Below are positions 1 through 9,578 of a stretch of 10,141 nucleotides of DNA, in pieces. This stretch comes from Streptomyces lilacinus (GTDB taxonomy: Bacteria > Actinomycetota > Actinomycetes > Streptomycetales > Streptomycetaceae), in contig KL569423.1 of assembly GCA_000715685.1 (NCBI GenBank), forward strand, positions 62,660 through 72,800. The letters run 5' to 3'. Under the pieces are notes generated by a model that saw nothing but the letters and a program-made list of their open reading frames with translations, did no database searches and had not been told where the DNA came from. Positions within the stretch are counted from its first letter, which is position 1. Each line of letters begins with the position of its first letter. The position numbers were made by a program, and so were the translations under genes.

Positions 1-12
1 GGCGGCCGGCAC
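1..12 (-). CDS. possible 5' end of the next CIS gene (partial, four codons)
   Basis: Reading leftward, a GTG at 12-10 lies 9 nt after a good Shine-Dalgarno, GGAGGGG (complement of 22-28), and would start a protein beginning M-P-A-A that leaves the window. The gene after DUF6760 in actinobacterial contractile injection system clusters is often a LysM-type tail protein, so a start here would make sense. With only four codons visible the product cannot be identified. The 59 bases between this start and the DUF6760 stop contain GC-rich palindromes, for example the 12-bp one at 46-57, that could fold in the transcript. Confidence 0.2.
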
Positions 13-71
13 CTCGCGCCACCCCTCCGCCCGCCCCGGGCGCGCCCCCGGCCGGGGTAATCGCCTCGTGC

Positions 72-230
72 TCACCGGCCCTCCGCCCTCGCGGTGTTGA
101 TCCTGGCGATCTCACGCACCCACGCGCGCCGCTCCTCGTGCGGGAAGGCGAGGATGTCCTCGTGCGCCCAGTGGAAGTGGTAGGCGATGTAGGCGACTTC
201 CTCGCGGAGCCGGTGCGCGGGGTGCGTCAT
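72..230 (-). CDS. DUF6760 family protein of a contractile injection system locus (52 aa)
   Basis: This small soluble protein carries the signature I associate with DUF6760: R-E-E-V-A-Y-I-A-Y-H-F-H-W near residues 9-21, then H-E-D-I-L, F-P-H-E-E-R-R and W-V-R-E-I-A-R-I-N. In known systems such genes sit among tail-tube, tail-assembly and LysM genes of phage-tail-like contractile injection systems. Their exact role is not established; a small assembly or chaperone factor is likely. The ATG overlaps the stop of the upstream 131-aa gene (ATGA), in the -1 frame, which implies translational coupling. A run of five G residues 4 nt before the ATG serves as ribosome binding site and is also the coding end of the upstream gene. 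No signal peptide or membrane segment is visible. It is too short for many gene callers. Confidence 0.8.
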   Translation of the reverse strand: MTHPAHRLREEVAYIAYHFHWAHEDILAFPHEERRAWVREIARINTARAEGR

Positions 231-622
231 GTTTCCCCCAGGCGGCCGCCGGACGACGGTGCCGGCACCGCGAAGTGCGTACCGCAGGAGGGGCAGGCGA
301 CGGCGCCGTAGCCGGACTCCAGGCCGTTGACGCGCCGGTAGAGGTCCTGGAGGTGGGCGAGGTCGGCGGCGAAGAGCTGTTCCACCACGCCCGCGTGGAT
401 GTCGGTCAGGGTGCCGAGCCGGGTGATGACCAGGCTGAGCAGGACGACGCCGAGGTAGGCGGGGTTCTCCTTCACCCGTTGGTCGATGAGGGGCGACAGC
501 TCGTCCCGCGCGGTGGCCAGGCGCATCGTGCCCTGGCGGTGCACGGTGCCGCCGGCGTCGACGTAGCCGTGGGGGAGCTCGAAGTCGAACTCGGTGCGGA
601 GCCGGGATCCGTTCTCCTGCAT
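227..622 (-). CDS. phage-tail-assembly-like protein of a contractile injection system (131 aa)
   Basis: A soluble 131-aa protein. The N-terminal part, F-D-F-E-L-P-x-G-Y-V-D at residues 12-22 followed by G-T-V-H-R-Q-G-T-M-R-L-A-T-A-R-D-E, resembles small tail-assembly proteins of Mu-like phages and of actinobacterial contractile injection systems. A helical core at about 41-100 (L-I-D-Q-R-V-K-E-N-P-A-Y-L, then V-I-T-R-L-G) leads to a C-terminal C-P-S-C at 110-113 with G-T-H-F, half of a zinc-ribbon-like pair; no second Cys pair is present, so metal binding may need dimerisation. It probably chaperones tube or baseplate parts in the cytoplasm. The ATG lies about 11 nt after GGAGGA, a little far. 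Its stop overlaps the DUF6760 start. Upstream, a strong hairpin separates it from the propeller gene. The family assignment is from motif memory. Confidence 0.7.
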   Translation of the reverse strand: MQENGSRLRTEFDFELPHGYVDAGGTVHRQGTMRLATARDELSPLIDQRVKENPAYLGVVLLSLVITRLGTLTDIHAGVVEQLFAADLAHLQDLYRRVNGLESGYGAVACPSCGTHFAVPAPSSGGRLGET

Positions 623-653
623 GGTGGGGCGGTTCCTCCGGGCGGTCGGCCGG

Positions 654-685
654 GCCGGCCTCCCACGACGGCGTGGGAGGCCGGC
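654..685 (-). terminator. strong intergenic hairpin between propeller and tail-assembly genes
   Basis: The arms 654-666 and 673-685 are perfect inverted repeats of 13 bp around a 6-nt loop (667-672), nearly all G:C. On the minus strand the hairpin begins 16 nt after the stop of the 518-aa gene and ends before the GGAGGA ribosome binding site of the 131-aa gene. There is no U-tract, which is common for Streptomyces terminators. It could end the propeller transcript, allow partial read-through into the tail genes, or act as a 3' stabiliser or processing site. The structure is seen directly; its function is inferred. Confidence 0.7.
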
Positions 686-701
686 GACGCGGCGTGCGGC
701 G

Positions 702-2258
702 TCAGTGGATGTTCAGGTGGTAGAGCAGGCTCACGTTCGTGTCGGCGGCCCACGCCTCGACCGAGAAGCCACCGGGACTGTCACCCGCCGTCACGACGGC
801 GGAGGTGACCGAGCCCCCGGCACCGCTCGTGACCTCGTCGGTGTCCCCTCCCCCGGGGAAGGAGGCCACGCGCTCTCCCCGGATCTTGAAGGTGACCGCG
901 ACGCCCTCGAGCGGATTGCCCTTCGCGTCCTCGACCACGAGCTTCAGTGGTTCGTCGAAGGACTTCCCCGCCGGGACGGTCTGACCGGCACCCGAGACGT
1001 ACCGGACACGGTCCGCCGCGCCCGGCTTCGGGGTGACGACCAGGCGGGAGAAGGCCGCGACAGCGTCGGTCTCCGTCCACCGCGCGGTGACGACGCAGGG
1101 CCCTTCCTTGACCGTCTTGAGCGGCGAGCTGGTCGCCACGCCGAGCTGGTCGCCGTCGGTACCGGTGTACCGCGTCTCGGTCGGCTTGCCGTTCTCGAAG
1201 ACCGCCGAGCCGCCCTCGACGGAGAACACGATTTTCTGCTTGGCCACCGGTGTGCCGTCCAGCTGGGTCGCCTTGACCGCCAGCGGCTTGGGGAAGCGCT
1301 CTCCGACGACGGTCGTCTGACCGTCCCCGGACTCCACCGCCAGCCGGTACCGGGAGACCCGTCGCAGTGCCTTCTCCCCGGCCAGCGCGACCCACAGCTT
1401 GCTGTCGCCGGAGATGGTGCTGCCCGAGGGGTGGGACCCCTGGCCGGCGGGGAGCATGGAGACCCGGTTCTGCCCGGGCAGCACATAGCCGATGGCGTCC
1501 CCCGCGTAGCTCGTGAACCACAGGGTGCCGTCCGCCGCCACCGTCAACCGATGGGCCGGGTGACTGATGTCGATCCGATTGGACACGCCTTCTGCGACGT
1601 TGTACTTGAACAGTACGTTCTCGGTGGTGGCCACCCATACGACGTCGCCGGCCGGGGTGATCGCCAGGTCTCGGGGCTCGACCCCGAGGCCCACGGGAGA
1701 CCCGAAGACACCGGTGTGCGCGTCGTAGATCACCAGCGACTTGCTCTGCGGGGAGGTGAGCCAGTAGTGCGTCGGGTCCTGCGCGGCGACGGCGACGGCG
1801 TAGAGGCTGGAGGTGTACACGGCGGAGGTGGAGAACCCGCCCCCGGCGTCGAGGAACCCCAGCGAGCTCCAGTCCATGAGCGGCGCGACGAGACGCTGAC
1901 GGCCTCCCGGCGCGGCGGCGAGCGCCAGGGAGCGGCAGTCCGTCTTGCCTCCCAGGAAGTGGGCCTGGTATTTGCCTTCCAGGTCACACTTGACGAAGCC
2001 GGAATCGTTCTCCCCGACGACGAAGGTCCACACCCCGTGGCCCGGCCAGGCGACGAGGGAATGCGCCCGGCCCGTGAGCACCGAGCCCCGATCGAAGAGG
2101 GTGTTGCTCCAGGGGCTGCGTGGCTCGAAGAGACCGACGAGGCCTTCGGCTGTGACGAACCATACGTTCCGGTCGTCGCGGTTCCACGTCAGGTCGACAG
2201 CGGGGGCGTCGATGGGGAACTTGTCGGCGTCGCGGTGGGACGGCGCGTCGGACGGCAT
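702..2258 (-). CDS. leaderless beta-propeller protein with two C-terminal Ig-like domains (518 aa)
   Basis: Residues ~20-300 contain repeated strands of the form (V/L)-W-(F/V)-(V/T/A): N-V-W-F-V-T (31-36), G-V-W-T-F-V (75-80), Y-W-L-T (165-168), V-V-W-V-A (206-210), T-L-W-F-T (245-249) and K-L-W-V-A (287-291). This is typical of Vgb/SMP-30-like six- or seven-bladed propellers. Two Big_1/invasin-like Ig modules follow, ~320-410 (L-A-V-K-A-T-Q-L-D-G-T-P-V) and ~412-518 (L-K-L-V-V-E-D-A-K-G-N-P-L-E-G-V-A-V-T-F). There is no signal peptide or membrane segment, unusual for Ig-like adhesion modules and compatible with loading into, or association with, a cytoplasmically assembled particle. GGAGGG lies 8 nt before the ATG. 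The stop of its 440-aa paralogue is 57 nt upstream, so the two are probably co-transcribed. Binding or recognition seems likelier than catalysis; true lyase activity is unsupported. Confidence 0.75.
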   Translation of the reverse strand: MPSDAPSHRDADKFPIDAPAVDLTWNRDDRNVWFVTAEGLVGLFEPRSPWSNTLFDRGSVLTGRAHSLVAWPGHGVWTFVVGENDSGFVKCDLEGKYQAHFLGGKTDCRSLALAAAPGGRQRLVAPLMDWSSLGFLDAGGGFSTSAVYTSSLYAVAVAAQDPTHYWLTSPQSKSLVIYDAHTGVFGSPVGLGVEPRDLAITPAGDVVWVATTENVLFKYNVAEGVSNRIDISHPAHRLTVAADGTLWFTSYAGDAIGYVLPGQNRVSMLPAGQGSHPSGSTISGDSKLWVALAGEKALRRVSRYRLAVESGDGQTTVVGERFPKPLAVKATQLDGTPVAKQKIVFSVEGGSAVFENGKPTETRYTGTDGDQLGVATSSPLKTVKEGPCVVTARWTETDAVAAFSRLVVTPKPGAADRVRYVSGAGQTVPAGKSFDEPLKLVVEDAKGNPLEGVAVTFKIRGERVASFPGGGDTDEVTSGAGGSVTSAVVTAGDSPGGFSVEAWAADTNVSLLYHLNIH

Positions 2259-2265
2259 GCTGATT

Positions 2266-2279
2266 CTCCCTCCTGGGAG
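2266..2279 (-). promoter_or_regulatory. small hairpin enclosing the ribosome binding site of the 518-aa gene
   Basis: The arms 2266-2270 and 2275-2279 form a 5-bp G:C-rich stem with a 4-nt loop. In the minus-strand transcript the GGAGGG ribosome binding site lies within this loop and its 3' arm, 8 nt before the ATG. It could weaken initiation unless ribosomes finishing the upstream 440-aa gene open it, giving coupling. With 5 bp it may equally be chance from purine/pyrimidine-rich Shine-Dalgarno sequence. Confidence 0.3.
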
Positions 2280-2315
2280 GAGTGAAAGGGGATGACCGGT
2301 GGAACGACGGCCTCG

Positions 2316-3638
2316 CTACGCGGGCTTGATGTTCAGAACGGAGGTCGCGTGGATCTCCGTGTCCCCGAGGCCGACGCTCAGCACGGCCTCCTCCTCGATG
2401 TCCCCGGCGTACACCGGCGGCACGACGACCTGACCGCGCTGGTCGGTCAGGATCACGCGCTCCCGGGTGTTGTCGTCGAACGTCGCTCCTTCCGCCTCGA
2501 GCCTGCAGGTGAGCGGAATTCCCGGCACGGGCCGGCCGTTGGCCACGTACTCGACGACCAGGGGACGGTCGACGTGCTCCTTCTCCTGGAGCTCGTACTC
2601 GCCCTGGTAGGTCACCTGGGTCCGGCCGATGCGGGAGGATTGACCGGCCACCGGGGCGGCGAGGGCGAACCTTCCCACGTTCTTCTGCGTGGGGTTGGTG
2701 TACCAGAGCTTTCCGTCGCTGCCGATGCAGATGCCCTTGGCACCGCCCGCGACGTCGACCATGGACCCCGGACCCGACAGCTCCCGGTCGAACTGGTGAA
2801 GTCCCTTGCTGGAGGCGACCCATACTTCACCGGTCGGCGCGAACGTCATCTGCTGGGGAACGGCGTCGCCCAGGTCTTGCTGACGCCACGTTGCGGTCTG
2901 TGGGTTGTAGCGCAGCACCTGGTTCGGGCTTGTCGCGGTCACCCAGATGTTCCCGCTTGTGTCGGCCTTCACGTAGAAGGGCTTCTGGGCAGTGCCCCGT
3001 GGCAGCATGATCCGCTGCCAGGTTTTCGTCTCCGGCGAGCGGCGGTACAGACCGTTCTCGGCCCTGGGCGGGTTGTTGGTCCTCTGCTGACCCGTAACCC
3101 AGTAGGTGTGGGTCTGCTTGTCCGCAGCCGTGGTGACGGCGACGTCCCAGAGCCACGTGTTCGGTTCGACGGAGATGACGTCGATCACGCCACCCGAGTT
3201 GGGAATGGCGAGCATTCCGACGTATTTGTTCTCCGGTTCGGCGAACAGGAGGGTGTATTGGGTGATCGGGGTGGGGGTGGACGGGATCTCGGTCGTCTGG
3301 AGCGTGATGCTCTCCGCCTTGGCGTTGTTCTCCAGTGGGTAGACGGTGACCACGTAGCTGCCCGTGGTCTCCATCTCCATGATGGGGTCCGGGTCGTTCG
3401 GCGGCGCCGGCGCGGCAAACCAGATCTTCTGCCTCCCGAGCGGGTCCTTCATGACTCCCGCGGACAGCTCGGGAATGGCGCCGTGCTTGATCTCGGTGCG
3501 CATCTTGTTCCCGGGATCAATGCGCACGATGCATTTGCTGCTCGTGGTGACCCACATCTTGCCTGCGTTCCCGACTCCGATCGAATGTGGCGTGAAATTG
3601 CCGATCGGGATTACTTCGACGCTGGACACGTCCGGCAT
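2316..3638 (-). CDS. leaderless beta-propeller protein with one C-terminal Ig-like domain (440 aa)
   Basis: This is the first gene of the leftward series and a paralogue of the 518-aa protein. Propeller strands recur at K-M-W-V-T (27-31), K-I-W-F-A (71-75), Y-W-V-T (179-182), N-I-W-V-T (230-234), E-V-W-V-A (271-275) and K-L-W-Y-T (310-314), each near loops such as 'D-T-S-G-N' or 'G-S-D-G-K' that are usual in Vgb/SMP-30-like folds. A single Ig-like domain fills ~345-440 (L-V-V-E-Y-V-A-N-G-R-P-V-P-G-I-P-L). No Sec or Tat signal is visible. GGAGGG lies 6 nt before the ATG at 3638. Codon choice looks somewhat less GC-rich at third positions than the PBP gene, which may hint at acquisition. Similar proteins are often named virginiamycin-B-lyase-like or 'hydrolytic'; nothing here supports that enzymatic activity. 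A cargo, binding or scaffold role with the contractile system is inference. Confidence 0.75.
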   Translation of the reverse strand: MPDVSSVEVIPIGNFTPHSIGVGNAGKMWVTTSSKCIVRIDPGNKMRTEIKHGAIPELSAGVMKDPLGRQKIWFAAPAPPNDPDPIMEMETTGSYVVTVYPLENNAKAESITLQTTEIPSTPTPITQYTLLFAEPENKYVGMLAIPNSGGVIDVISVEPNTWLWDVAVTTAADKQTHTYWVTGQQRTNNPPRAENGLYRRSPETKTWQRIMLPRGTAQKPFYVKADTSGNIWVTATSPNQVLRYNPQTATWRQQDLGDAVPQQMTFAPTGEVWVASSKGLHQFDRELSGPGSMVDVAGGAKGICIGSDGKLWYTNPTQKNVGRFALAAPVAGQSSRIGRTQVTYQGEYELQEKEHVDRPLVVEYVANGRPVPGIPLTCRLEAEGATFDDNTRERVILTDQRGQVVVPPVYAGDIEEEAVLSVGLGDTEIHATSVLNIKPA

Positions 3639-4131
3639 GCCGTTTCCCTCCGGGTCCGACTGGCTGGCCGGTCGAGGCTATGCGGTCGGTGCGGCCGCCA
3701 CATCGGGGAGATCCGGCCACACTTCGCCTATGCCTCCGGCATTTGGCCAAGGGGCTCGGCCTGCTGACCGGATCTCACGAAACCGCTGTTGGCGACCGCG
3801 TGCGGTATCCCGTCTTCCGGATAACTCGCCGAGAAAAGCCGGTGATACACCCTGCGTCAAGGGTGCCGTCACGGCTTGATCGGCATGTGATTCCTTGGCC
3901 GGAATCTCCCGAGCCCGCCGATTTTGGCCGTTGATGGCCGCGCCGATGGCGCGAAATCCGACCCGCATGGTCCGCACCAAATTCCGAACAAGAGTTCTGC
4001 GGCTCTCGGACGCCCTCGAAAATCGCGCTCGCGGGCCGTAGTCGAAGGAGGGAAATCCGGGTACGGCGACCGCCGGCGGGGCCGGCGAGCCACCCACGCG
4101 GACGGCAAGCGCACGACGGCCGCCCGTCCGT
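3639..4131. other. non-coding region upstream of the propeller genes
   Basis: This 493-bp gap lies between the TNT gene's 3' end and the start of the propeller series, both on the minus strand. It is less GC-rich than its flanks and contains rare codons (TTA, AGA, ATA, GTA) in its longest leftward open frame, so I do not regard it as coding. It must hold the promoter of the propeller/CIS series. A TTGACG at 3860-3855 (minus strand) is the best -35-like hexamer, but no convincing -10 follows at 17-18 nt. A short hairpin (4071-4087) near its right side may end TNT transcription. Confidence 0.5.
4071..4087 (-). terminator. possible terminator of the TNT-domain gene
   Basis: A perfect 7-bp G:C stem (4071-4077 with 4081-4087) around a 3-nt loop lies about 45 nt downstream of the TNT gene stop in its direction of reading. 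A second, weaker stem (4099-4105 with 4124-4130) sits between. No U-tract follows. In such GC-rich DNA, stems of this size also occur by chance. Confidence 0.3.
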
Positions 4132-5058
4132 TCAGCCCCGGCTCGCGACGAGCTCCTGGAACAGGCGCTGCGAGGCGCGGGACTCGTCGGCGTACCGCGC
4201 GACGAGGCGGTCCTTTCCGCGCTCGTTCAGAGTGACGACCCACTGGCCGGCGGTCTTGCGCAGGCGGTAGAACTCCGTCGCGGGCAGCCGGGGCTCGTGG
4301 ACGGAGTCGATGCGGTAGTACGCGTCGGGAACTCCGGCGCGGGCCAGCGCGGCACGCGCGTCGGCGCGGTTCGCCACGGGCTTCAGCGGCGTGGCCGGGC
4401 GGGGGGACGTACGGCTGCGCCCGGGCGTCGCGTCCTCCAGGACCTTGTTCAGCAGGTCCTTGACGGGGACGCCGAGCTTGACCTGTGTTCCCCCGCCGCT
4501 CTGACCGAACGCGGGCGCTATCTTGCCCTTCAGTACGTTGAGGCTCTGCCCCTTCATCACCTTGTACTGGTGGTAGTTGCACTCGACGTCGCCGGAGTAC
4601 GTGTGAAGGTTCGAGGGCGGTATGGCCCGTTCCTGGTAGAGCGCCGCCTTGGACTTCTCCACCGGCGAGAGGAACGTACCGTTCGTCGACCCGAAGCGGT
4701 CCAGTGTCGTGCCCTCCGACAGGGTCACCGTGGTCGGCTGGCCGTCGAAGCCGTCGTTCTTCGGGTATATCCAATTCCAGTCGTTGTCCTTCCAGTCGTT
4801 GAGGAAGGACCTGGCCGTCGGGTACGTCCCGAACCGCGCATAGCCCTTGACCAGTGATCCCACCGCGCCTTGCTTCGGCAGTTCCTTCGGCCCCAGGGAC
4901 CAGTCCCCCTGGAAGGGGTCCAGGCACTGCGTGGGCTGCGCGGCCGAGGGCGTGTCCTGCCCGGGCTGACCGGGCGCGGCCTGTGCCGTGCCCGACAGCG
5001 CCGTACCCCCAAGTAACGCGCCGCACGCGGCTATCACCATGCGCGTAGTGACCCTCAT
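4132..5058 (-). CDS. secreted TNT-domain protein, predicted NAD+ glycohydrolase (308 aa)
   Basis: A Sec signal peptide (M-R-V-T-T-R, hydrophobic stretch 7-24, cleavage likely after A-Q-A at 27) predicts export. The mature region has C45, then G-D-W-S-L-G-P-K-E-L-P, V-G-S-L-V-K-G-Y-x-R-F-G and W-x-Y-P-K-N-D-G-F-D-G (~50-106), as in secreted TNT NADases. The TNT core runs ~95-200: T-L-D-R-F-G (118-123), F-L-S-P, the Y/H-rich N-Y-H-Q-Y (161-165) and F-G-Q-S-G-G-G-T-Q (184-192). R121 and Q192 fit the conserved catalytic positions. C45 and C160 could form a disulfide. A separate small module at ~230-308 (A-R-A-A-L-A-R-A-G-V-P-D-A-Y-Y-R) is of unknown role. The start at 5058 is chosen because GGAGGG lies 6 nt upstream and the signal peptide begins there; a start 12 codons earlier is less likely. 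No immunity gene for TNT is recognisable beside it. Confidence 0.85.
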   Translation of the reverse strand: MRVTTRMVIAACGALLGGTALSGTAQAAPGQPGQDTPSAAQPTQCLDPFQGDWSLGPKELPKQGAVGSLVKGYARFGTYPTARSFLNDWKDNDWNWIYPKNDGFDGQPTTVTLSEGTTLDRFGSTNGTFLSPVEKSKAALYQERAIPPSNLHTYSGDVECNYHQYKVMKGQSLNVLKGKIAPAFGQSGGGTQVKLGVPVKDLLNKVLEDATPGRSRTSPRPATPLKPVANRADARAALARAGVPDAYYRIDSVHEPRLPATEFYRLRKTAGQWVVTLNERGKDRLVARYADESRASQRLFQELVASRG

Positions 5059-5291
5059 CAGCCCTCCAGGCATTTCCGTGTCATCGAGGCTCACCGGCCT
5101 CAGGCGTCAACACGGGGAACCTAACAGCGCAGGGGGCCGAGCGAGAGGAGTGGATCACGCCACATGGCCGAAGCGAGAACTGTCCAATTCCCGCCGCCCT
5201 CACCGAAAGTGGGTCTGGCATGCCCCTTGCCGACGTCCCTACAGTCCGCTGGACGCATCGATTCCGGTCGCGACGGAGAAGAGGGACCTTC
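5059..5291. promoter_or_regulatory. divergent promoter region between the TNT gene and the oxidase remnant
   Basis: These 233 bp separate divergent genes and must hold both promoters. On the plus strand TACAGT at 5240-5245 is a reasonable -10-like hexamer and would give a ~40-nt leader before the ATG at 5292, but the -35 is poor. On the minus strand TAGGTT (complement of 5118-5123) is a -10-like hexamer for the TNT gene, and a TTGACG lies nearer the start without a matching -10. No clear operator palindrome was found. Element assignments are weak. Confidence 0.35.
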
Positions 5292-5876
5292 ATGGATCAA
5301 ACGATCACGCGCGTCGCCATTTACCCGCCGATCGGCATCGCCCGCGTCGGAAACAGCGAGGACAAGGACGGTTTCTTCTTCGGCCCGGAGTCGCCCGACC
5401 AGAGCCCCTTACCCGCCGGCTCCTACAAGGACGCGCAGGGCGCCATCAAGCGACAGGCCGCCCGCTTCCGGCTGTACGGATACAACGCCGCCGGCCAGGT
5501 CGTCCGCGAAATCACCGCCGCGGACCAGAAAACCCGGATCGTGTGGAGCGCACATCTGGCCAACAAGAAGTCGGCCTGGTACCAATTCAGCCTCGCCTTC
5601 GACATCCCGGACATCAATCGCCTGAGCCGGGACCAGTTCACCCGGCGCAACGCGGCCGAGACCGACCGGAATTCCCTGATCAACGACCCGGGCGAGAGGA
5701 GCATCGACGGCACCCCCGACGCCGCGCCCGTGGCCTTCGACACCGGGAAGGTCAAGGACACGCCGGTCTACCTCGGCGAGCTGCGCACGGACGCCGGATC
5801 GCGGCCGGCGACGCGGCGGCCGCCTTCGACCCGCTGTCGTCGCAGGGCATCCTCACGGCCCTCTACACCGGGCTGA
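5292..5876 (+). pseudogene. 5' fragment of a LodA/GoxA-type CTQ-dependent amino-acid oxidase
   Basis: LodA/GoxA enzymes are ~600-700-aa quinoproteins that oxidise lysine or glycine and release H2O2. Here only the N-terminus survives. It begins I-Y-P-P-I-G-I-A-R-V-G-N-S (residues 9-21) and continues with Y-K-D-A-Q-G-A-I-K-R-Q-A-A-R-F-R-L-Y-G-Y, H-L-A-N-K-K-S-A-W-Y-Q-F and V-Y-L-G-E-L-R-T-D (~159-167), all hallmark segments in the right order. Family similarity stops at about base 5795. The frame then runs on for ~26 unrelated Arg/Pro/Ser-rich codons to a stop at 5876, because the DNA has become the 3' end of the partner gene in another frame. The region that would carry the Cys and Trp forming the quinone cofactor is missing, so it is inactive as an oxidase. 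GAGGG 6 nt before the ATG suggests it can still be translated. Confidence 0.85.
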
Positions 5877-6097
5877 GCGCGGGCGAGGCGATCGACGCGA
5901 GCCTGCGCGGGAGGCCAGGGGCCCTGGAGGCGTACGCGGCACGGGTGGCGCGCGTGCTCGAAGGGTACGCCCGCGACCACCGCGCCGCCTACGCGATGGA
6001 GCGCCGCTGGCCGCACCGGCCCTTCTGGGCCCGCCGCATGTCGACGTCGACGAGAACCGTTGCTGCCCTGTCACCCGGCGAAGCGACCACCGGGTGA
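5795..6097 (+). pseudogene. 3' fragment of a LodB/GoxB-type flavoprotein (oxidase maturation partner)
   Basis: In a frame different from the upstream fragment, the DNA encodes R-I-A-A-G-D-A-A-A-A-F-D-P-L-S-S-Q-G-I, the C-terminal FAD-binding signature of LodB/GoxB and related halogenase-like flavoproteins. This is followed by A-L-Y-T-G-L-S-A-G-E-A-I-D-A, Y-A-x-R-V-A-R-V-L-E-G-Y and the family-typical E-R-R-W-P-H-R-P-F-W-A-R-R. Only ~100 of the ~400-450 residues usual for the family remain and no start or ribosome binding site precedes them. LodB proteins install the CTQ cofactor in LodA and their genes lie directly downstream, so an internal deletion joining the two genes explains both fragments. 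The stop codon (6095-6097) sits inside a hairpin. Confidence 0.85.
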
Positions 6098-6102
6098 CGG
6101 GG
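6066..6102 (+). terminator. hairpin terminator at the end of the oxidase/flavoprotein remnant
   Basis: Arms 6070-6078 and 6090-6098 pair perfectly over 9 bp around an 11-nt loop, and extend outward by a T:G wobble and three more C:G pairs to 6066/6102. The remnant's TGA stop lies within the right arm. No U-tract follows. The convergent small gene on the minus strand ends 42 nt away, so the element may act in both directions. It probably once terminated the intact oxidase operon. Confidence 0.6.
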
Positions 6103-6144
6103 AACGAGGGACTTGGACGCGGGATCTGTCGGACGCGGAAGGCG

Positions 6145-6423
6145 TCAGCCGCAGGAGGTGAAGGTCGGGCTGGTGTTCGCGATGTACAGGGTCGCGCCGC
6201 CCTTGGGGTCGTCCTTGAGGGGGACGGTGACCGTGTCCTCGGCTGTCCAGGGGAAGCCGCGCGCGTCGAACGTCCAGGTGCCGGTCACCTTCTTCGCCAG
6301 CACCGACAGGGTCACCCAGCCGTAGTTGTTGGCGGGGACAGGCACGGTGACCTGGTTGTTGACGCTCTCCGAGCCCTGCCAGACCTGGGAGAGCTGGTTG
6401 GAGAGCTGCATCTGGACCTTCAC
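6145..6423 (-). CDS. small beta-rich hypothetical protein (92 aa)
   Basis: I do not recognise this protein with certainty. It starts M-K-V-Q-M-Q-L-S-N-Q-L-S and is rich in Val/Thr/Ser/Trp beta-strand patterns: V-N-N-Q-V-T-V-P-V-P-A-N-N-Y-G-W-V-T-L-S-V, then K-V-T-G-T-W-T-F-D-A-R-G-F and A-E-D-T-V-T-V-P-L. It ends F-T-S-C-G with a single Cys. The amphipathic strand pairs and 'T-V-P-x-P-A-N' resemble the insertion-domain region of ETX/MTX2 aerolysin-like proteins, but it lacks the length of a full toxin and any signal peptide. The GTG at 6423 is chosen because GGGGG lies ~9 nt upstream; a TTG at 6429 is the alternative. It starts ~23 nt after the phosphatase stop, so both are probably one transcript. 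Aerolysin similarity is a guess. Confidence 0.6.
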   Translation of the reverse strand: MKVQMQLSNQLSQVWQGSESVNNQVTVPVPANNYGWVTLSVLAKKVTGTWTFDARGFPWTAEDTVTVPLKDDPKGGATLYIANTSPTFTSCG

Positions 6424-6446
6424 GGCCAACTGCCCCCGGACCCCGG

Positions 6447-7583
6447 TCAGCGCGCGGTGATCGGCGCGGGGGCGAGCCGCTGGACGGCGACCATGGCCGC
6501 GTCGTCGCCCAGGGAGCCGCCGGCGTGGGCCAGCAGGTCACCGCACAGGTGCCGCAGGAGCGCCTGGGGGCCGCTGCCCGACCATGCCGCCATCCGCTCG
6601 GCCAGCGGATAGAACGCGCCGGACTCGTCACGCGCCTCGATGACGCCGTCCGTGTACAGCAGCACGACGTCGCCCGGCTCGAACGCGTAGGACTCCACGG
6701 AGACGTCGGTGTGGGCGACCTCGATCAGGCCCAGGGGAAGCGACGGCCGGCTCACCTCCAGCGGGGTGACCCGGCCGGCGCGCAGCAGCAGGGGCGGGGG
6801 GTGCCCGCAGCTGACCAGGTGCAGGACGGACTCGGTGTCGGGCACGTCCAGCACGGCCGCGGTCACGAAGGTCTCCCCCCGGTCGGCGCGTTCCTTCCGC
6901 CGCGTGCCGGGGTCGGCCAGGTCGGAGGAGACGGCCCCCTCCAGGTCGGCGACCAGGACCGGCAGCTCGGCCTGCCGGTGGGCGGCGGCCCGGAAGGCCC
7001 CGAGGACGAGCGCGGCCTCACCGATGGCCTGCAGCCCCTTGCCCCGTACGTCGCCGATGACCAGCCGCGTGCCCCGGGCCGTGCGGGTGACGGCGTACAG
7101 GTCGCCGCCGATCTGCGCCTCGGCCTCCGCGGCGAGGTAGACGGACGCGATGCGCAGCGGGCCGATCCGCTGCGGGAGCGCGCGCAGCAGCACCCCCTGG
7201 GCCGCCTCCGCCACCGATCTGAGCTGCGTCATCTCCTTCTCGTGCCGCTCGCGGTGATGGGCGAAGAAGGTCACGATCGCCGAGATCAGGATCAGGGCGG
7301 TGATCTGGAGGGTGTGGTTGAGGTCGATGAGGCTGGTGCGGGTGGCGGCTACGACGGCCTGGGCCACGACGGCGAGCACCCCGACGGACGCCGTCAGCCA
7401 CGGGCCGGCGAACGACGCCGTGATGGCGGGAGCGGCGACGAGGAAGGGCCCGAGGTGCACGTCGGGCGGAGCCAGGACGTCGACCACGGTGACGACCAGG
7501 ACGAGGAGAAGCGGCACCGCCACCAGCGCATGGCTCCGTTGCCATGGCCATCGGTGATCCCCGCGGAGTCGCCGAAGGTCCAT
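6447..7583 (-). CDS. membrane PP2C/SpoIIE-type serine/threonine phosphatase (378 aa)
   Basis: The N-terminus is membrane-embedded, with hydrophobic segments at about 20-38, 43-82 (probably two crossings) and 91-108, then a short coiled linker (H-R-E-R-H-E-K-E-M-T-Q-L, 110-121). The cytoplasmic catalytic domain (~140-370) has the SpoIIE/PP2C metal-binding motifs: I-G-G-D-L-Y (158-163), G-D-V-R-G-K-G (177-183), S-C-G-H-P-P-P-L-L-L (258-267), L-L-Y-T-D-G-V-I-E-A (308-317) and D-D-A-A-M-V-A-V (360-367). Such actinobacterial proteins dephosphorylate anti-sigma-factor antagonists in partner-switching or sporulation/stress circuits. No kinase, antagonist or PAS/GAF sensor is present here, so the signal is unknown. 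AGGAGG lies only 1 nt before the ATG, which is oddly close; the family-like M-D-L-R-R start still supports it. It is followed by a small gene in the same direction. Confidence 0.9.
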   Translation of the reverse strand: MDLRRLRGDHRWPWQRSHALVAVPLLLVLVVTVVDVLAPPDVHLGPFLVAAPAITASFAGPWLTASVGVLAVVAQAVVAATRTSLIDLNHTLQITALILISAIVTFFAHHRERHEKEMTQLRSVAEAAQGVLLRALPQRIGPLRIASVYLAAEAEAQIGGDLYAVTRTARGTRLVIGDVRGKGLQAIGEAALVLGAFRAAAHRQAELPVLVADLEGAVSSDLADPGTRRKERADRGETFVTAAVLDVPDTESVLHLVSCGHPPPLLLRAGRVTPLEVSRPSLPLGLIEVAHTDVSVESYAFEPGDVVLLYTDGVIEARDESGAFYPLAERMAAWSGSGPQALLRHLCGDLLAHAGGSLGDDAAMVAVQRLAPAPITAR

Positions 7584-7889
7584 GCCTCCTGCTTACACCA
7601 CGGGGCACCCGCTGCCCCCGTCGCCATGCCCGCCGCCGGCGCATCACCGGGCCATCGGCGTTCGAACGGGCCATCGCCGCCCTTCGGGGCCGGAGCGGGC
7701 CCTCGGCGGCCCGGAGTAGGAACCCGCCGTGATCCGCCACTCACACCCTCCGGGCATATCAGCCCACAACGCGGGCCGAACGTCGCACCCGGGGACCTCG
7801 CCCGGGTGAAGCAGCCCCGCACGACGTTCGGCGGGCGGCGGCCCGCGGTACGGCTGCCGCACGCACATGGGCTCGAAACAGGTGGCGGC
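7584..7889. other. divergent non-coding region between the phosphatase and PBP genes
   Basis: This 306-bp interval separates divergent genes and should hold both promoters. I see no convincing -10/-35 pair. A GGAAC at about 7717-7721 recalls sigma-E-type -35 elements, which would suit a cell-envelope gene, but no clear GTC/TT -10 follows at the expected distance. The interval's main structured element is the nested inverted repeat at 7775-7832. An in-frame GTG at 7806 lies inside that structure and could extend the PBP by 28 residues, but the result would be a less standard signal peptide. Confidence 0.4.
7775..7832 (+). promoter_or_regulatory. nested inverted repeat upstream of the PBP gene
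   Basis: An outer perfect 11-bp inverted repeat (7775-7785 with 7822-7832) encloses an adjoining perfect 8-bp inverted repeat (7786-7793 with 7801-7808) with a 7-nt loop. Together they make a 19-bp helix with one 13-nt bulge on the 3' side (7809-7821). It ends 57 nt before the PBP start. It could be a structured mRNA leader, an attenuator, or the binding site of a dimeric regulator. The pairing is directly seen; whether it is transcribed is unknown. Confidence 0.5.
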
Positions 7890-9578
7890 ATGAGAAGACG
7901 CTTCGCTCGTGGACGACGCCGGCGGGCCCTCACGGCCGGCGCGCTCGCCGTGATCACGGCGATGGCCACGATCGCGCCCGCCGCCGCGGCGACGGCCCCT
8001 GCCGCAAGCCCCCCGGCGGTCCGTGGCGACGGACTCGGCCCCGAGATCGCGGCGATCATGAAGAAGCCGCAGTACGCGCACGCGCGATGGGGGCTGCTGG
8101 AGATCGACGACAAGGGCCGCACGGTCCACTCGCGGAGGGCCGACGAGTTCTTCGTCCCCGGATCAGCGGCCAAGCTTTTCAGCGTCTCGGGCACCTGGCG
8201 GACGCTCGGCGGCGACCACCGCTTCATCACGCCGGTGCACGCCGTGGGGGAGCGCGACGGATCGGCCCTGGACGGCGATCTCGTGCTCGTCGCCCAGGGC
8301 GACCTCAGCCTGGGCGGCCGGACGAGACCCGACGGCACCCTCGACTACACCGACGTCGACCACACCTACGCCAACGACGTCCCCGGCGCCACGCTGACGC
8401 CCGAGAACCCCCTCGCCGGGCTCGACGCCCTCGCCCGCCAGGTGCGCCGGTCCGGCATCACCGCGGTCCACGGCGACGTCCTCGTCGACTCCCGGCTCTT
8501 CACCTCGTCCCCCGACCTCGACCCGAGCCCGGCCCCGCTCATCGTCAACGACAACGTCATCGACCTGCTGACCACCCCGACCTCCGCCGGCCGCCCGGCC
8601 CGCCTCGACTGGCGCCCCCACGTCGCGCCGTACCGGGTCGAGTCGAGCGTACGGACGGTGCGCGCGGGCGGTCGCACGGACATCTCCGTGTCCGCCTCGT
8701 CCGACGGCACGCGCATCCGCCTCACCGGGACGATCGCCGCCGGCGCGAAGCCGGTGCTGAGGGTCAGCCCCGTCCACGACCCCGACGCCTTCGGCCGCAC
8801 GGCCCTGATCGAGGCACTGGACCGCGCGGGAGTCGCCGTCGACGCGCCGCCGACCGGCCCCAACCGGACCGACCGGCTGCCGCGCTCACCGCGCGACGGC
8901 AGGCGCGTCGCGGCCTACGTTTCTCCGCCCTACGCCGAGTACGCCGAGGTCATCCTCAAGGTCAGCCACAACCTCGGGGCCAACCTGGGCATCTGCCTGA
9001 TGGCCGTGCACGCCGGGAGCCGCGCGTGCGCGGACGGCTTCCGTCCGCTCACCGCGTTCCTCCGCCGGGCCGGCGTGGACCCCACGCGGCTGCAGCTCCT
9101 CGACGGCCGCGGCGGCAACCCGGTGGATCGCGTCACCCCGACGGCCTTCCCCCCACTGCTGCGTTACTGGGAGCGCACCCCGGAGGCCGCGCGCTTCCGG
9201 CGCGCCCTGCCCGTCCTGGGGGTGGACGGTTCGCTGGCCGGCTCCTGCACCCGCCGCGCCACCTGCCGGGCTCACGGCAAGGTCTTCGCCAAACCCGGCA
9301 CGGTCGCCGGCTACGACGCCGTCAACCGGCGCGTGGCCGTCGGCGGCGAGACCCTCGCCGGATACCTCGAGACCGGCCACGGCCGCCGGCACACCTTCTT
9401 CATCGGTGTGAACGGCGCCTCCGCGCCGGACGTCCAGGGCGTCCTCGCCCTCGCCGACGACCTGAACCGCATCGCGGCCCTCCTCCAGCAACGGGCCGCG
9501 GCGGCTCACGCTCCCGGTGCGCGGGACGTACGCCGCCGCTCCACGGCGCGCCCCAGCAGGAAGGGAACCATCCGGTGA
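7890..9578 (+). CDS. dacB: secreted D-alanyl-D-alanine carboxypeptidase/endopeptidase, PBP4 (DacB) family (562 aa)
   Basis: This enzyme acts outside the membrane on peptidoglycan, removing terminal D-Ala or cutting cross-links. An Arg-rich N-terminus (residues 1-12) and hydrophobic Ala-rich stretch (13-34) form a signal peptide. Serine-peptidase S13 features follow in order: active-site S-x-x-K as G-S-A-A-K (91-95), S-H-N (359-361, second motif), D-G-R-G-G-N (405-410, where D-G-S-G is usual), L-P-V-L-G-V-D-G-S-L-A-G (440-451) and A-K-P-G-T-V-A-G (467-474) in place of the usual K-T-G-T. The ~160-residue insertion between motifs 1 and 2 is typical of PBP4. Two Cys pairs are possible (C369/C380, C453/C459). 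AGGTGG lies 5 nt before the ATG. The Arg-rich tail (548-562) overlaps a convergent gene. The S13 assignment is strong; full activity is less certain because of K-P-G. Confidence 0.88.
   Translation: MRRRFARGRRRRALTAGALAVITAMATIAPAAAATAPAASPPAVRGDGLGPEIAAIMKKPQYAHARWGLLEIDDKGRTVHSRRADEFFVPGSAAKLFSVSGTWRTLGGDHRFITPVHAVGERDGSALDGDLVLVAQGDLSLGGRTRPDGTLDYTDVDHTYANDVPGATLTPENPLAGLDALARQVRRSGITAVHGDVLVDSRLFTSSPDLDPSPAPLIVNDNVIDLLTTPTSAGRPARLDWRPHVAPYRVESSVRTVRAGGRTDISVSASSDGTRIRLTGTIAAGAKPVLRVSPVHDPDAFGRTALIEALDRAGVAVDAPPTGPNRTDRLPRSPRDGRRVAAYVSPPYAEYAEVILKVSHNLGANLGICLMAVHAGSRACADGFRPLTAFLRRAGVDPTRLQLLDGRGGNPVDRVTPTAFPPLLRYWERTPEAARFRRALPVLGVDGSLAGSCTRRATCRAHGKVFAKPGTVAGYDAVNRRVAVGGETLAGYLETGHGRRHTFFIGVNGASAPDVQGVLALADDLNRIAALLQQRAAAAHAPGARDVRRRSTARPSRKGTIR

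What the first reader, a model, noticed from the sequence alone, without database searches (positions are those of the whole stretch)
702..3638. Tandem leaderless propeller-Ig proteins attached to a contractile injection system locus
Seen: two adjacent genes with Vgb/SMP-30-like W-(V/F)-(T/A) propeller strands and C-terminal Ig-like domains, neither with a signal peptide, directly ahead of a tail-assembly-like gene and a DUF6760 gene. Known: Ig/Big domains are usually found on exported proteins, while actinobacterial CIS particles assemble in the cytoplasm. Inference: the pair may be CIS cargo, a particle-bound recognition module or a regulator of firing. It is the strongest candidate in this window for an undescribed system.
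Basis: partly seen in the sequence, partly recalled or inferred. Interest (0 to 1): 0.7.

Follow-up and report, generated by a model that had tools for sequence, protein, structure and literature searches.

The report
Swappable propeller pair of injection machine
In some Streptomyces the gene cluster for a phage-tail-like injection machine includes two neighbouring genes for propeller proteins with predicted Ig-like ends, and because these differ sharply as one block between otherwise near-identical clusters, the pair is likely an exchangeable recognition part of the machine.

Summary
On the minus strand lie P440 (2316-3638) and P518 (702-2258), leaderless propeller proteins with predicted C-terminal Ig domains, directly ahead of a tail-chaperone-like gene (ZnR) and DUF6760. 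They belong to a contractile injection system (CIS) locus. Of 16 pairs found, 14 sit directly before ZnR-DUF6760, one at the other end of a CIS locus, one (G388) away from any CIS. All 9 ZnR hits of the window's clade in 392 genus genomes carry the pair; in 22 pair-free ZnR loci examined the tube gene stands there instead. No CisA-like membrane adaptor was detected at pair loci, while 182 of 192 ZnR-positive, pair-free genomes have one. New evidence is an exchange island: between operons with core proteins 90-99% identical, P440 plus the P518 propeller and most of its first Ig drop to about 55-78% DNA identity with raised synonymous divergence, while the second P518 Ig, ZnR and the cargo-type gene upstream stay alike. 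I read the pair as an exchangeable recognition head with a constant Ig anchor (inferred). Cargo, firing regulator and neutral exchange are rivals; no binding or particle data exist, and the island is seen in one group of five close loci.

The parts
2316..3638 (-). P440: leaderless propeller protein (propeller about residues 1-327) with a predicted C-terminal Ig-like domain (about 338-440); differs over its whole length between allele classes
   Evidence: ORF; Vgb_lyase 43.6 bits; model pLDDT 87.4; exchange island
702..2258 (-). P518: leaderless propeller protein with two predicted C-terminal Ig-like domains
1344..2231 (-). P518 propeller (residues about 10-305), the variable part: 57-59% identity between allele classes
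1029..1346 (-). P518 Ig1 (residues about 305-410); the island's border lies in it, near residues 380-400 (inferred from the identity and dS profile)
705..1028 (-). P518 Ig2 (residues about 411-518), the constant part: 88-94% identity between the same allele classes; proposed attachment to the machine (inferred)
653..686 (-). hairpin between P518 and ZnR (14 pairs, G-T pairs and one mismatch allowed); hairpins of 13-19 pairs in the same gap in 12 of 14 loci, none in G312a and G312b; possible terminator or processing element (inferred)
   Evidence: no T run, so not listed by the terminator scan
227..622 (-). ZnR: 131-aa tail-assembly-chaperone-like CIS gene, found in 200 of 392 genus genomes
72..230 (-). 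DUF6760 gene (52 aa), overlaps ZnR by 4 bases

Best explanation
The two genes are a conserved part of a distinct Streptomyces CIS locus type in which no CisA-like gene was detected, and they likely encode the exchangeable recognition head of the CIS particle, with the second Ig domain of P518 predicted to be its constant attachment to the machine. Shown: fixed gene order with the CIS baseplate operon, no detectable CisA-like gene at these loci, and a sharp divergence island covering P440 plus the P518 propeller and most of Ig1 between alike flanks. Inferred: the island arose by allele replacement; P440 and the P518 head form a complex, because they differ together; the complex is held to the particle through P518 Ig2 and a conserved CIS part; the propellers contact the target or trigger; and this replaces the CisA membrane route used by the common Streptomyces CIS.
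For: Order P440-P518-ZnR-DUF6760 in 14 distinct loci, own included (13, own), out of 16 pairs found; 12 of the 14 show further CIS genes on the same contig, the two others (G326, L016) lie near a contig edge. All 9 ZnR hits of 78% identity or more in the 392-genome sample are pair loci; the next hit is at 70%. In 22 pair-free ZnR loci (the best-scoring of 192 such genomes) the ORF directly before ZnR is tube-like in all 22 (read by eye; 5 of them confirmed by BLAST); in 8 of 8 pair loci it is P518. CisA-like gene: 182 of 192 ZnR-positive, pair-free genomes against 2 of 8 pair genomes with ZnR; in those two (G485, G620) it lies on another contig that also holds a sheath gene; none in the 3 pair genomes outside that sample (G149, G152, G196). 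Exchange, G620 against G505: mostly 85-99% DNA identity over the operon but 56-76% over P440 and P518 up to about base 2600, then 87-96%; dS 0.52-0.78 in the island, 0.23 in late Ig1-Ig2, 0.04-0.16 in seven CIS genes, 0.42 in the sampled YncE part. P518 propeller 58% against Ig2 94% in that pair. The upstream DUF4157-type gene stays 82-95% alike in the same comparison. P518 and P440 distances are 2.4 and 2.7 times the core mean, like the sampled part of the YncE propeller protein (2.6), and follow the core distances less closely (r 0.70 and 0.46; other genes 0.79-0.97).
Against: G388 carries a diverged pair (P518 36%, P440 29%) with no CIS match within 20 kb on either side; its one sheath hit is 9 Mb away. 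No particle, binding or expression data. The island is seen in one group of five close loci, so at least one event; G485/G152, the other pair of loci compared in this way, shows none. Two further stretches of the operon diverge too. Recombination alone does not prove recognition. Known CIS fibres attach by an N-terminal part (recalled) and usually follow the baseplate genes (PMC12237407, passage), unlike this pair; the YncE propeller protein, not the pair, sits there. CisA counts are not corrected for relatedness, and the wide search scored only 7 candidates a genome.
Confidence: 0.48

Rival explanations
1. P440 and P518 are CIS cargo (injected effectors): variable alleles are kept next to the machine and loaded into the tube.
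For: A DUF4157-type motif lies within 6 kb upstream of P440 in 8 of 15 regions examined; adjacency to DUF4157 genes is described as a feature of effectors that lack the domain (PMC13277306 and PMC11297309, passages). Allelic exchange is also typical of effectors (recalled).
Against: No DUF4157 HExxH or LQRxAGN-type motif in 18 P518 or 17 P440 proteins. All 9 loci of this ZnR clade in the sample have the pair at one position, whereas cargo-type genes differ between loci. Two propellers with Ig domains would have to be unfolded or fit the lumen (inference). No toxin domain matched.
Confidence: 0.2
2. The pair are soluble regulators of firing or assembly factors that act in the producer cell, for instance a sensor that takes the place of CisA.
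For: No signal peptide or transmembrane stretch; no CisA-like gene at these loci, and in S. coelicolor contraction depends on CisA (PMC12237407, abstract passage). A hairpin between P518 and ZnR in 12 of 14 loci suggests separate dosage from the baseplate operon.
Against: A cytoplasmic sensor of a conserved machine would not be expected to be the largest divergence island of the operon, nor to have a variable head and constant tail.
Confidence: 0.17
3. The pair are enzymes of the virginiamycin B lyase / SMP-30 type that merely ride next to the CIS locus.
For: Fold and weak family matches to virginiamycin B lyase; SGL just over its cut-off in P440.
Against: The catalytic His270 (named in the title of entry 2z2p) is not a histidine in P440 in either register of the alignment: glutamine in the stronger one (24.5 bits, to 2qc5), A60 in a weak one (8.0 bits, to 2z2p) (read by hand). 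No histidine is invariant in the P440 alignment and only H74 in that of P518. NCBIfam lyase scores 18.6 and 23.7 against a cut-off of 600. Strict synteny with CIS has no reason under this reading.
Confidence: 0.05
4. The divergence island is neutral: a chance homologous replacement in the operon carried in a distant allele, with no link to recognition.
For: Only one group of five loci shows it; a proline-rich ORF and a stretch of the YncE protein also diverge.
Against: Identity starts to fall within about 400 bases before P440 and recovers inside P518 Ig1, so the cargo-type gene and the CIS genes on either side are spared; one of the two other divergent stretches lies in another propeller protein.
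Confidence: 0.1

Closest known systems
Common Streptomyces CIS (type IId; CIS-Sc / SLP)
   Same: Sheath, tube, ZnR, DUF6760, LysM tube initiator, VgrG, gp25, J, tail P2 I, Pvc16 cap, AAA ATPase
   Different: Pair-type loci have two sheath genes around the tube in a divergent group, P440-P518 before ZnR where the common type has the tube, a leaderless YncE-like multi-propeller protein of about 1000-1270 aa, and no CisA-like gene. The type IId label is taken from PMC12237407 (passage); no subtype assignment was computed here
CisA (SCO4242)
   Same: CIS-linked accessory factor; the pair is proposed to serve the same step, coupling of the particle to a target (inference)
   Different: CisA is a bitopic membrane protein (PMC12237407, passages); P440 and P518 have no transmembrane stretch
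CIS tail fibres with beta-propeller lectin or Ig folds (eBAP3 group; PMC12923769, section 7 and passages)
   Same: Propeller and bacterial Ig folds used for binding; fast evolution
   Different: Those fibres carry an eBAP baseplate domain and shaft; P440 and P518 are short with no evident shaft in the models, and eBAP could not be tested here
Virginiamycin B lyase (Vgb)
   Different: Added Ig domains; His270 not kept in P440 in the alignments seen; CIS synteny
PD40-propeller + DUF11 protein of 1065 aa (L095:4936-8133) and similar-sized proteins in common CIS loci
   Same: Propeller repeats followed by DUF11 (Ig-like, recalled) domains, in a CIS locus beside Pvc16 (one protein scanned)
   Different: Single protein with a hydrophobic N-terminus; no significant BLAST match between P440 or P518 and the proteins of six common loci (best E 0.09)

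Membership tests
Virginiamycin B lyase | propeller fold | tested here: met
Virginiamycin B lyase | catalytic His270 | tested here: not met
   P440: Q in the stronger register, A60 in the weaker (read by hand; weak alignments). P518: the alignments do not cover this position, so inconclusive there
Virginiamycin B lyase | family score over curated cut-off | tested here: not met
   Pfam 28.9 and 43.6 against 50; NCBIfam 18.6 and 23.7 against 600
CIS locus (for the neighbourhood) | sheath, tube, baseplate, cap and ATPase genes together | tested here: met
   own contig C48: sheath, tube gp19, spike tip, CIS_tube/LysM, gp25, Pvc16_N; AAA ATPase shown in a pair-type relative, G229
Common type IId CIS with CisA | CisA-like membrane protein at or near the locus | tested here: not met
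   none in the own genome (86.5% complete) and 8 other pair genomes that have a CIS; in G485 and G620 only on a contig with another sheath gene. The query is a CisA-like protein of G301, not SCO4242 itself
CIS cargo (effector) | DUF4157 HExxH motif or LQRxAGN-type motif | tested here: not met
   0 of 18 P518, 0 of 17 P440 proteins
CIS cargo (effector) | close to CIS genes and to DUF4157 genes | tested here: met
   (DUF4157-type motif in 8 of 15 upstream regions; not in the own one)
CIS tail fibre | N-terminal baseplate-attachment domain (eBAP) and shaft | not testable with these tools
   eBAP models are not among the libraries used; no evident shaft in the models
CIS tail fibre | constant anchor plus variable binding part between related systems | tested here: met
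   P518 Ig2 88-94% against propeller 57-59% between allele classes; that these parts anchor and bind is inferred
CIS tail fibre | gene just downstream of the baseplate genes | tested here: not met
   the pair precedes ZnR at the other end of the baseplate operon
CIS particle component | present in purified particles | not tested
   needs mass spectrometry

The most novel reading that the evidence does not exclude
A CisA-less class of Streptomyces contractile injection systems carries a two-protein propeller-Ig recognition head that is swapped as a cassette by homologous recombination, with the boundary inside an Ig domain of P518: a new kind of modular aiming device that replaces membrane coupling in the producer by recognition on the particle.
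Probability: 0.4. Interest if true: 0.78.

Novelty: new variant of a known kind. Interest (0 to 1): 0.6.

Why it matters
Streptomyces CIS are described as cytoplasmic machines whose firing depends on the membrane protein CisA (PMC12237407). A subtype without a detectable CisA-like gene and with an exchangeable propeller-Ig pair would show a second mode of action in the same genus and make 'what do these machines aim at' directly testable: the near-identical operons of two allele classes are natural constant-machine, variable-head comparisons.

Tried and rejected
Standalone lyase: rejected on residue and scores. Phage gene: no P440 match in 50,697 phage records, no PHROG match for the pair. Plasmids: one plasmid record matched P518, the 2.8 Mb record of Streptomyces sp. 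BHT-5-2, whose length and match coordinates equal those of G229. Relatives elsewhere: 1 of 396 phylum genomes, the own one (only 4 candidates scored a genome, so weak). The profile search of 5.8 billion proteins scored 7994 candidates and returned 26: 25 P440-like proteins, own included (where named: Streptomyces, Streptoverticillium or Saccharothrix sp. ST-888), and one weak one, P0025. G149 is the one pair genome in another genus of the family. A 24% tblastn hit in a Nitrospinae MAG (L023) was set aside as a generic propeller. (hairpins between tube and ZnR in common loci) used the wrong strand for many loci and is discarded; in the six annotated common loci the tube-ZnR gap is 11 bases in 3, a 4-base overlap in 2, and 146 as called in G604. 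Rfam: no match. Sigma-70-like promoters: 0 in window 1-4200. Solved-structure and PDB fold searches gave propellers at the top; the Ig parts were not searched alone. The viral fold search gave mixed propeller and Ig proteins, none used. One search has a 5% and a 24% window at the very end of two profiles, a slice-end artefact. Literature: no paper on this pair and none with the word DUF6760 was found in the library (in one search, 15 of 30 papers were listed). PMC12923769 was read in section 7 and passages; PMC10066040, PMC12237407, PMC13277306, PMC11297309 and PMC8505568 in passages only; all other papers in search listings only.
Full report

THE LOCUS. Beyond the window the same contig encodes, toward lower coordinates, a proline-rich ORF, a second tube-like protein, CIS_tube/LysM, VgrG, gp25, two J-like proteins, tail P2 I, YncE-like propellers, Pvc16_N, then, divergently, sheath, tube gp19, sheath and spike tip (VgrG, J and P2 I named from reading and from relatives). 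The own contig holds masked N runs flanked by recurring peptide scraps, which look like adapter joins (inference), so its long-range order alone is weak; relatives without N (G229, G485) show the same order.

CONSERVATION OF THE PAIR WITH CIS. I compared 21 fetched regions of relatives. In 13 of these 14 (all but G388), and in the own locus, the order is P440-P518-ZnR-DUF6760 (own). Twelve of these 14 loci (own included) show further CIS genes on the same contig; G326 and L016 lie near a contig edge. Other copies: a diverged second pair in G485 beside the sheath genes of the same locus; a lone P440 copy in G229 about 17.5 kb from its pair; and the diverged pair in G388 with no CIS match within 20 kb on either side, although G388 has one sheath hit 9 Mb away and no ZnR. 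So of 16 pairs, 14 are directly before ZnR, one is elsewhere in a CIS locus, one is orphan. G312 has two CIS loci, each with its own pair.

RARITY AND A DISTINCT SUBTYPE. P440 is in 5 of 297 family genomes, P518 in 9 of 392 genus genomes, own included; 8 of these 9 have ZnR, which is in 200 of the same 392. ZnR of the pair loci is 76-86% identical to the window's; in the sample the 9 best ZnR hits (78% or more by that search) are all pair loci and the next is at 70%. This test does not start from the pair, so it is not circular. Loci were returned for 22 of the 192 pair-free ZnR genomes, the best-scoring ones: in all 22 the ORF directly before ZnR is tube-like (read by eye; G471, G444, G615, G604 and G507 confirmed by BLAST); in all 8 pair loci returned it is P518. 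In six common loci annotated in full, a CisA-like protein with a strong hydrophobic segment (and a zinc ribbon in the five called at full length) follows the baseplate genes. Over the 392 genomes, CisA-like matches are in 182 of 192 ZnR-positive pair-free genomes, and in 2 of 8 pair genomes with ZnR. Those two, G485 and G620, hold it on a different contig together with another sheath gene. Six further genomes have CisA-like matches without ZnR. Relatedness is not corrected for, and the wide search scored 7 candidates a genome, the narrow one all. I call the gene CisA-like by position, zinc ribbon, single hydrophobic segment and the description in PMC12237407 (passages); I did not compare it with SCO4242 itself.

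THE EXCHANGE ISLAND. Five loci (G620, G519, G505, G196, G229) have near-identical CIS cores (ZnR, LysM, VgrG, gp25, P2I, tube2: 90-100% protein identity; J1 83-92%, Pvc16 78-96%), yet P440 and P518 fall into two classes, G620/G519 and G505/G196/G229, at 58-62% and 69-71% between classes and 77-89% and 83-93% within. Between classes the P518 propeller is 57-59%, Ig1 76-81%, Ig2 88-94% identical. DNA identity of G620 against G505 from 5 kb upstream, through two cargo-type genes, is 82-97% except one 30% window between them; it falls to 80 and 73% in the last 400 bases, is 56-76% across P440 and P518 up to about base 2600, and returns to 87-96%. G519 differs from the others further upstream (51% or less beyond about 2.4 kb before P440), so the alike upstream flank there is the nearest gene only. 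Over the operon of G620 against G505 most windows are 85-99%; besides the pair, a proline-rich ORF (36-80%) and about 900 bases of the YncE protein (69-78%) diverge, and one further window falls to 81%. Synonymous divergence rises from 0.04-0.16 in seven CIS genes to 0.52-0.78 in the island and falls to 0.23 in late Ig1-Ig2; the sampled YncE part is at 0.42 (G620-G505). That pattern points to replacement by a distant allele rather than fast amino-acid change alone (inference). Controls: within classes the pair shows no comparable rise (G620-G519 0.12-0.16 against 0.02-0.14 in the core; G505-G196 0.12-0.26 against 0.09-0.18; G505-G229 0.26-0.31 against 0.12-0.30), and in G485-G152 the pair (0.27-0.44) is not above the core (0.30-0.56). 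The YncE part diverges between G620 and G519, which share pair alleles (dS 0.40), so it varies independently.

CARGO IS ELSEWHERE. In 8 of 15 upstream regions (own and G388 included; two shorter than 6 kb in the table) a DUF4157-type HExxHVxQQ ORF lies within 6 kb of P440, and in 6 of these an LQRxAGN-type motif is present; the own locus has neither. P440 and P518 proteins have neither (0 of 17, 0 of 18). The nearest cargo-type gene is spared by the exchange island. Still, adjacency to DUF4157 genes is a described feature of effectors without the domain, so cargo stays the main rival.

MECHANISM. Most likely (0.48): the pair is a two-protein recognition head. Shown: co-location, fixed order, joint divergence of P440 with the P518 propeller and Ig1, constancy of P518 Ig2. 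Inferred: physical complex, anchoring by Ig2, target contact by the propellers, functional replacement of CisA. A hairpin of 13-19 pairs sits between P518 and ZnR in 12 of 14 loci, with differing letters (in each of the 12, at most 5 of 100 shuffles reach it; G312a and G312b have none). It lacks a T run and the terminator scan did not list it. It may end or process the pair's transcript apart from the baseplate operon (inference). At least one common locus carries a different protein with a hydrophobic N-terminus, PD40 propeller repeats and DUF11 domains next to Pvc16, with similar-sized proteins at that place in four of the other five and a fused call in the sixth, so propeller-Ig architecture may recur in Streptomyces CIS loci without detectable sequence relation.

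MEMBERSHIP AND NOVELTY. Not filed as a lyase: scores fail for both, the catalytic residue for P440 (weak alignments), and it was not covered for P518. Not filed as a tail fibre, since position fails and the attachment domain could not be tested, though it works like one in having constant and variable parts. A new variant of a known kind: a CIS locus type with a new accessory module. No paper on it was found in eight library searches.

Noticed in passing
window 4132-5094 (-): Protein with an export-signal-like N-terminus and a TNT domain (82.8 bits), lying where cargo-type genes lie in several relatives; as a tblastn query it gave no hit in the 21 other regions.
   Followed up: partly
window 5292-6097 (+): LodA N-terminal domain (175 bits) that breaks off; the following frame resembles the C-terminal part of a flavoprotein (recalled, LodB-like): looks like a deletion remnant of a lodA-lodB pair.
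   Followed up: no
window 653-686 (-): GC-rich 14-pair hairpin between P518 and ZnR; hairpins of different sequence at the same place in 12 of 14 loci.
   Followed up: partly
G000:C48, e.g. L004 around 3465-8659: Masked N runs with recurring flanking peptide scraps (VYKRQ, CLLYT, MCIRD): probably adapter remnants at assembly joins.
   Followed up: no
G000:C102:12004-12474 (-): A third sheath hit of the own genome (74.9 bits) on another contig; it may belong to another CIS or a phage.
   Followed up: no
G388:C1:10215206-10217949: Orphan, strongly diverged P440-P518 pair (29% and 36%) without CIS genes within 20 kb, near another propeller-like ORF.
   Followed up: partly
G229:C2 (same length and match as NZ_CP081497.1): A pair-type CIS locus on a 2.8 Mb record filed as a plasmid of Streptomyces sp. 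BHT-5-2.
   Followed up: partly
L095:4936-8133 (-): 1065-aa protein with hydrophobic N-terminus, PD40 propeller repeats and DUF11 domains directly before Pvc16 in a common CIS locus.
   Followed up: partly
L043:4459-7446 (-) and counterparts: Leaderless multi-propeller protein (Lactonase/SGL matches) after the baseplate genes, with its own divergent stretch of about 900 bases between close loci.
   Followed up: partly
L037:17289-19607 (-): 772-aa protein beside the spike tip gene with a weak ADP-ribosyltransferase-like C-terminus (15.7 bits, below cut-off) and a QQEAGNAA motif near its start; a candidate CIS cargo.
   Followed up: no
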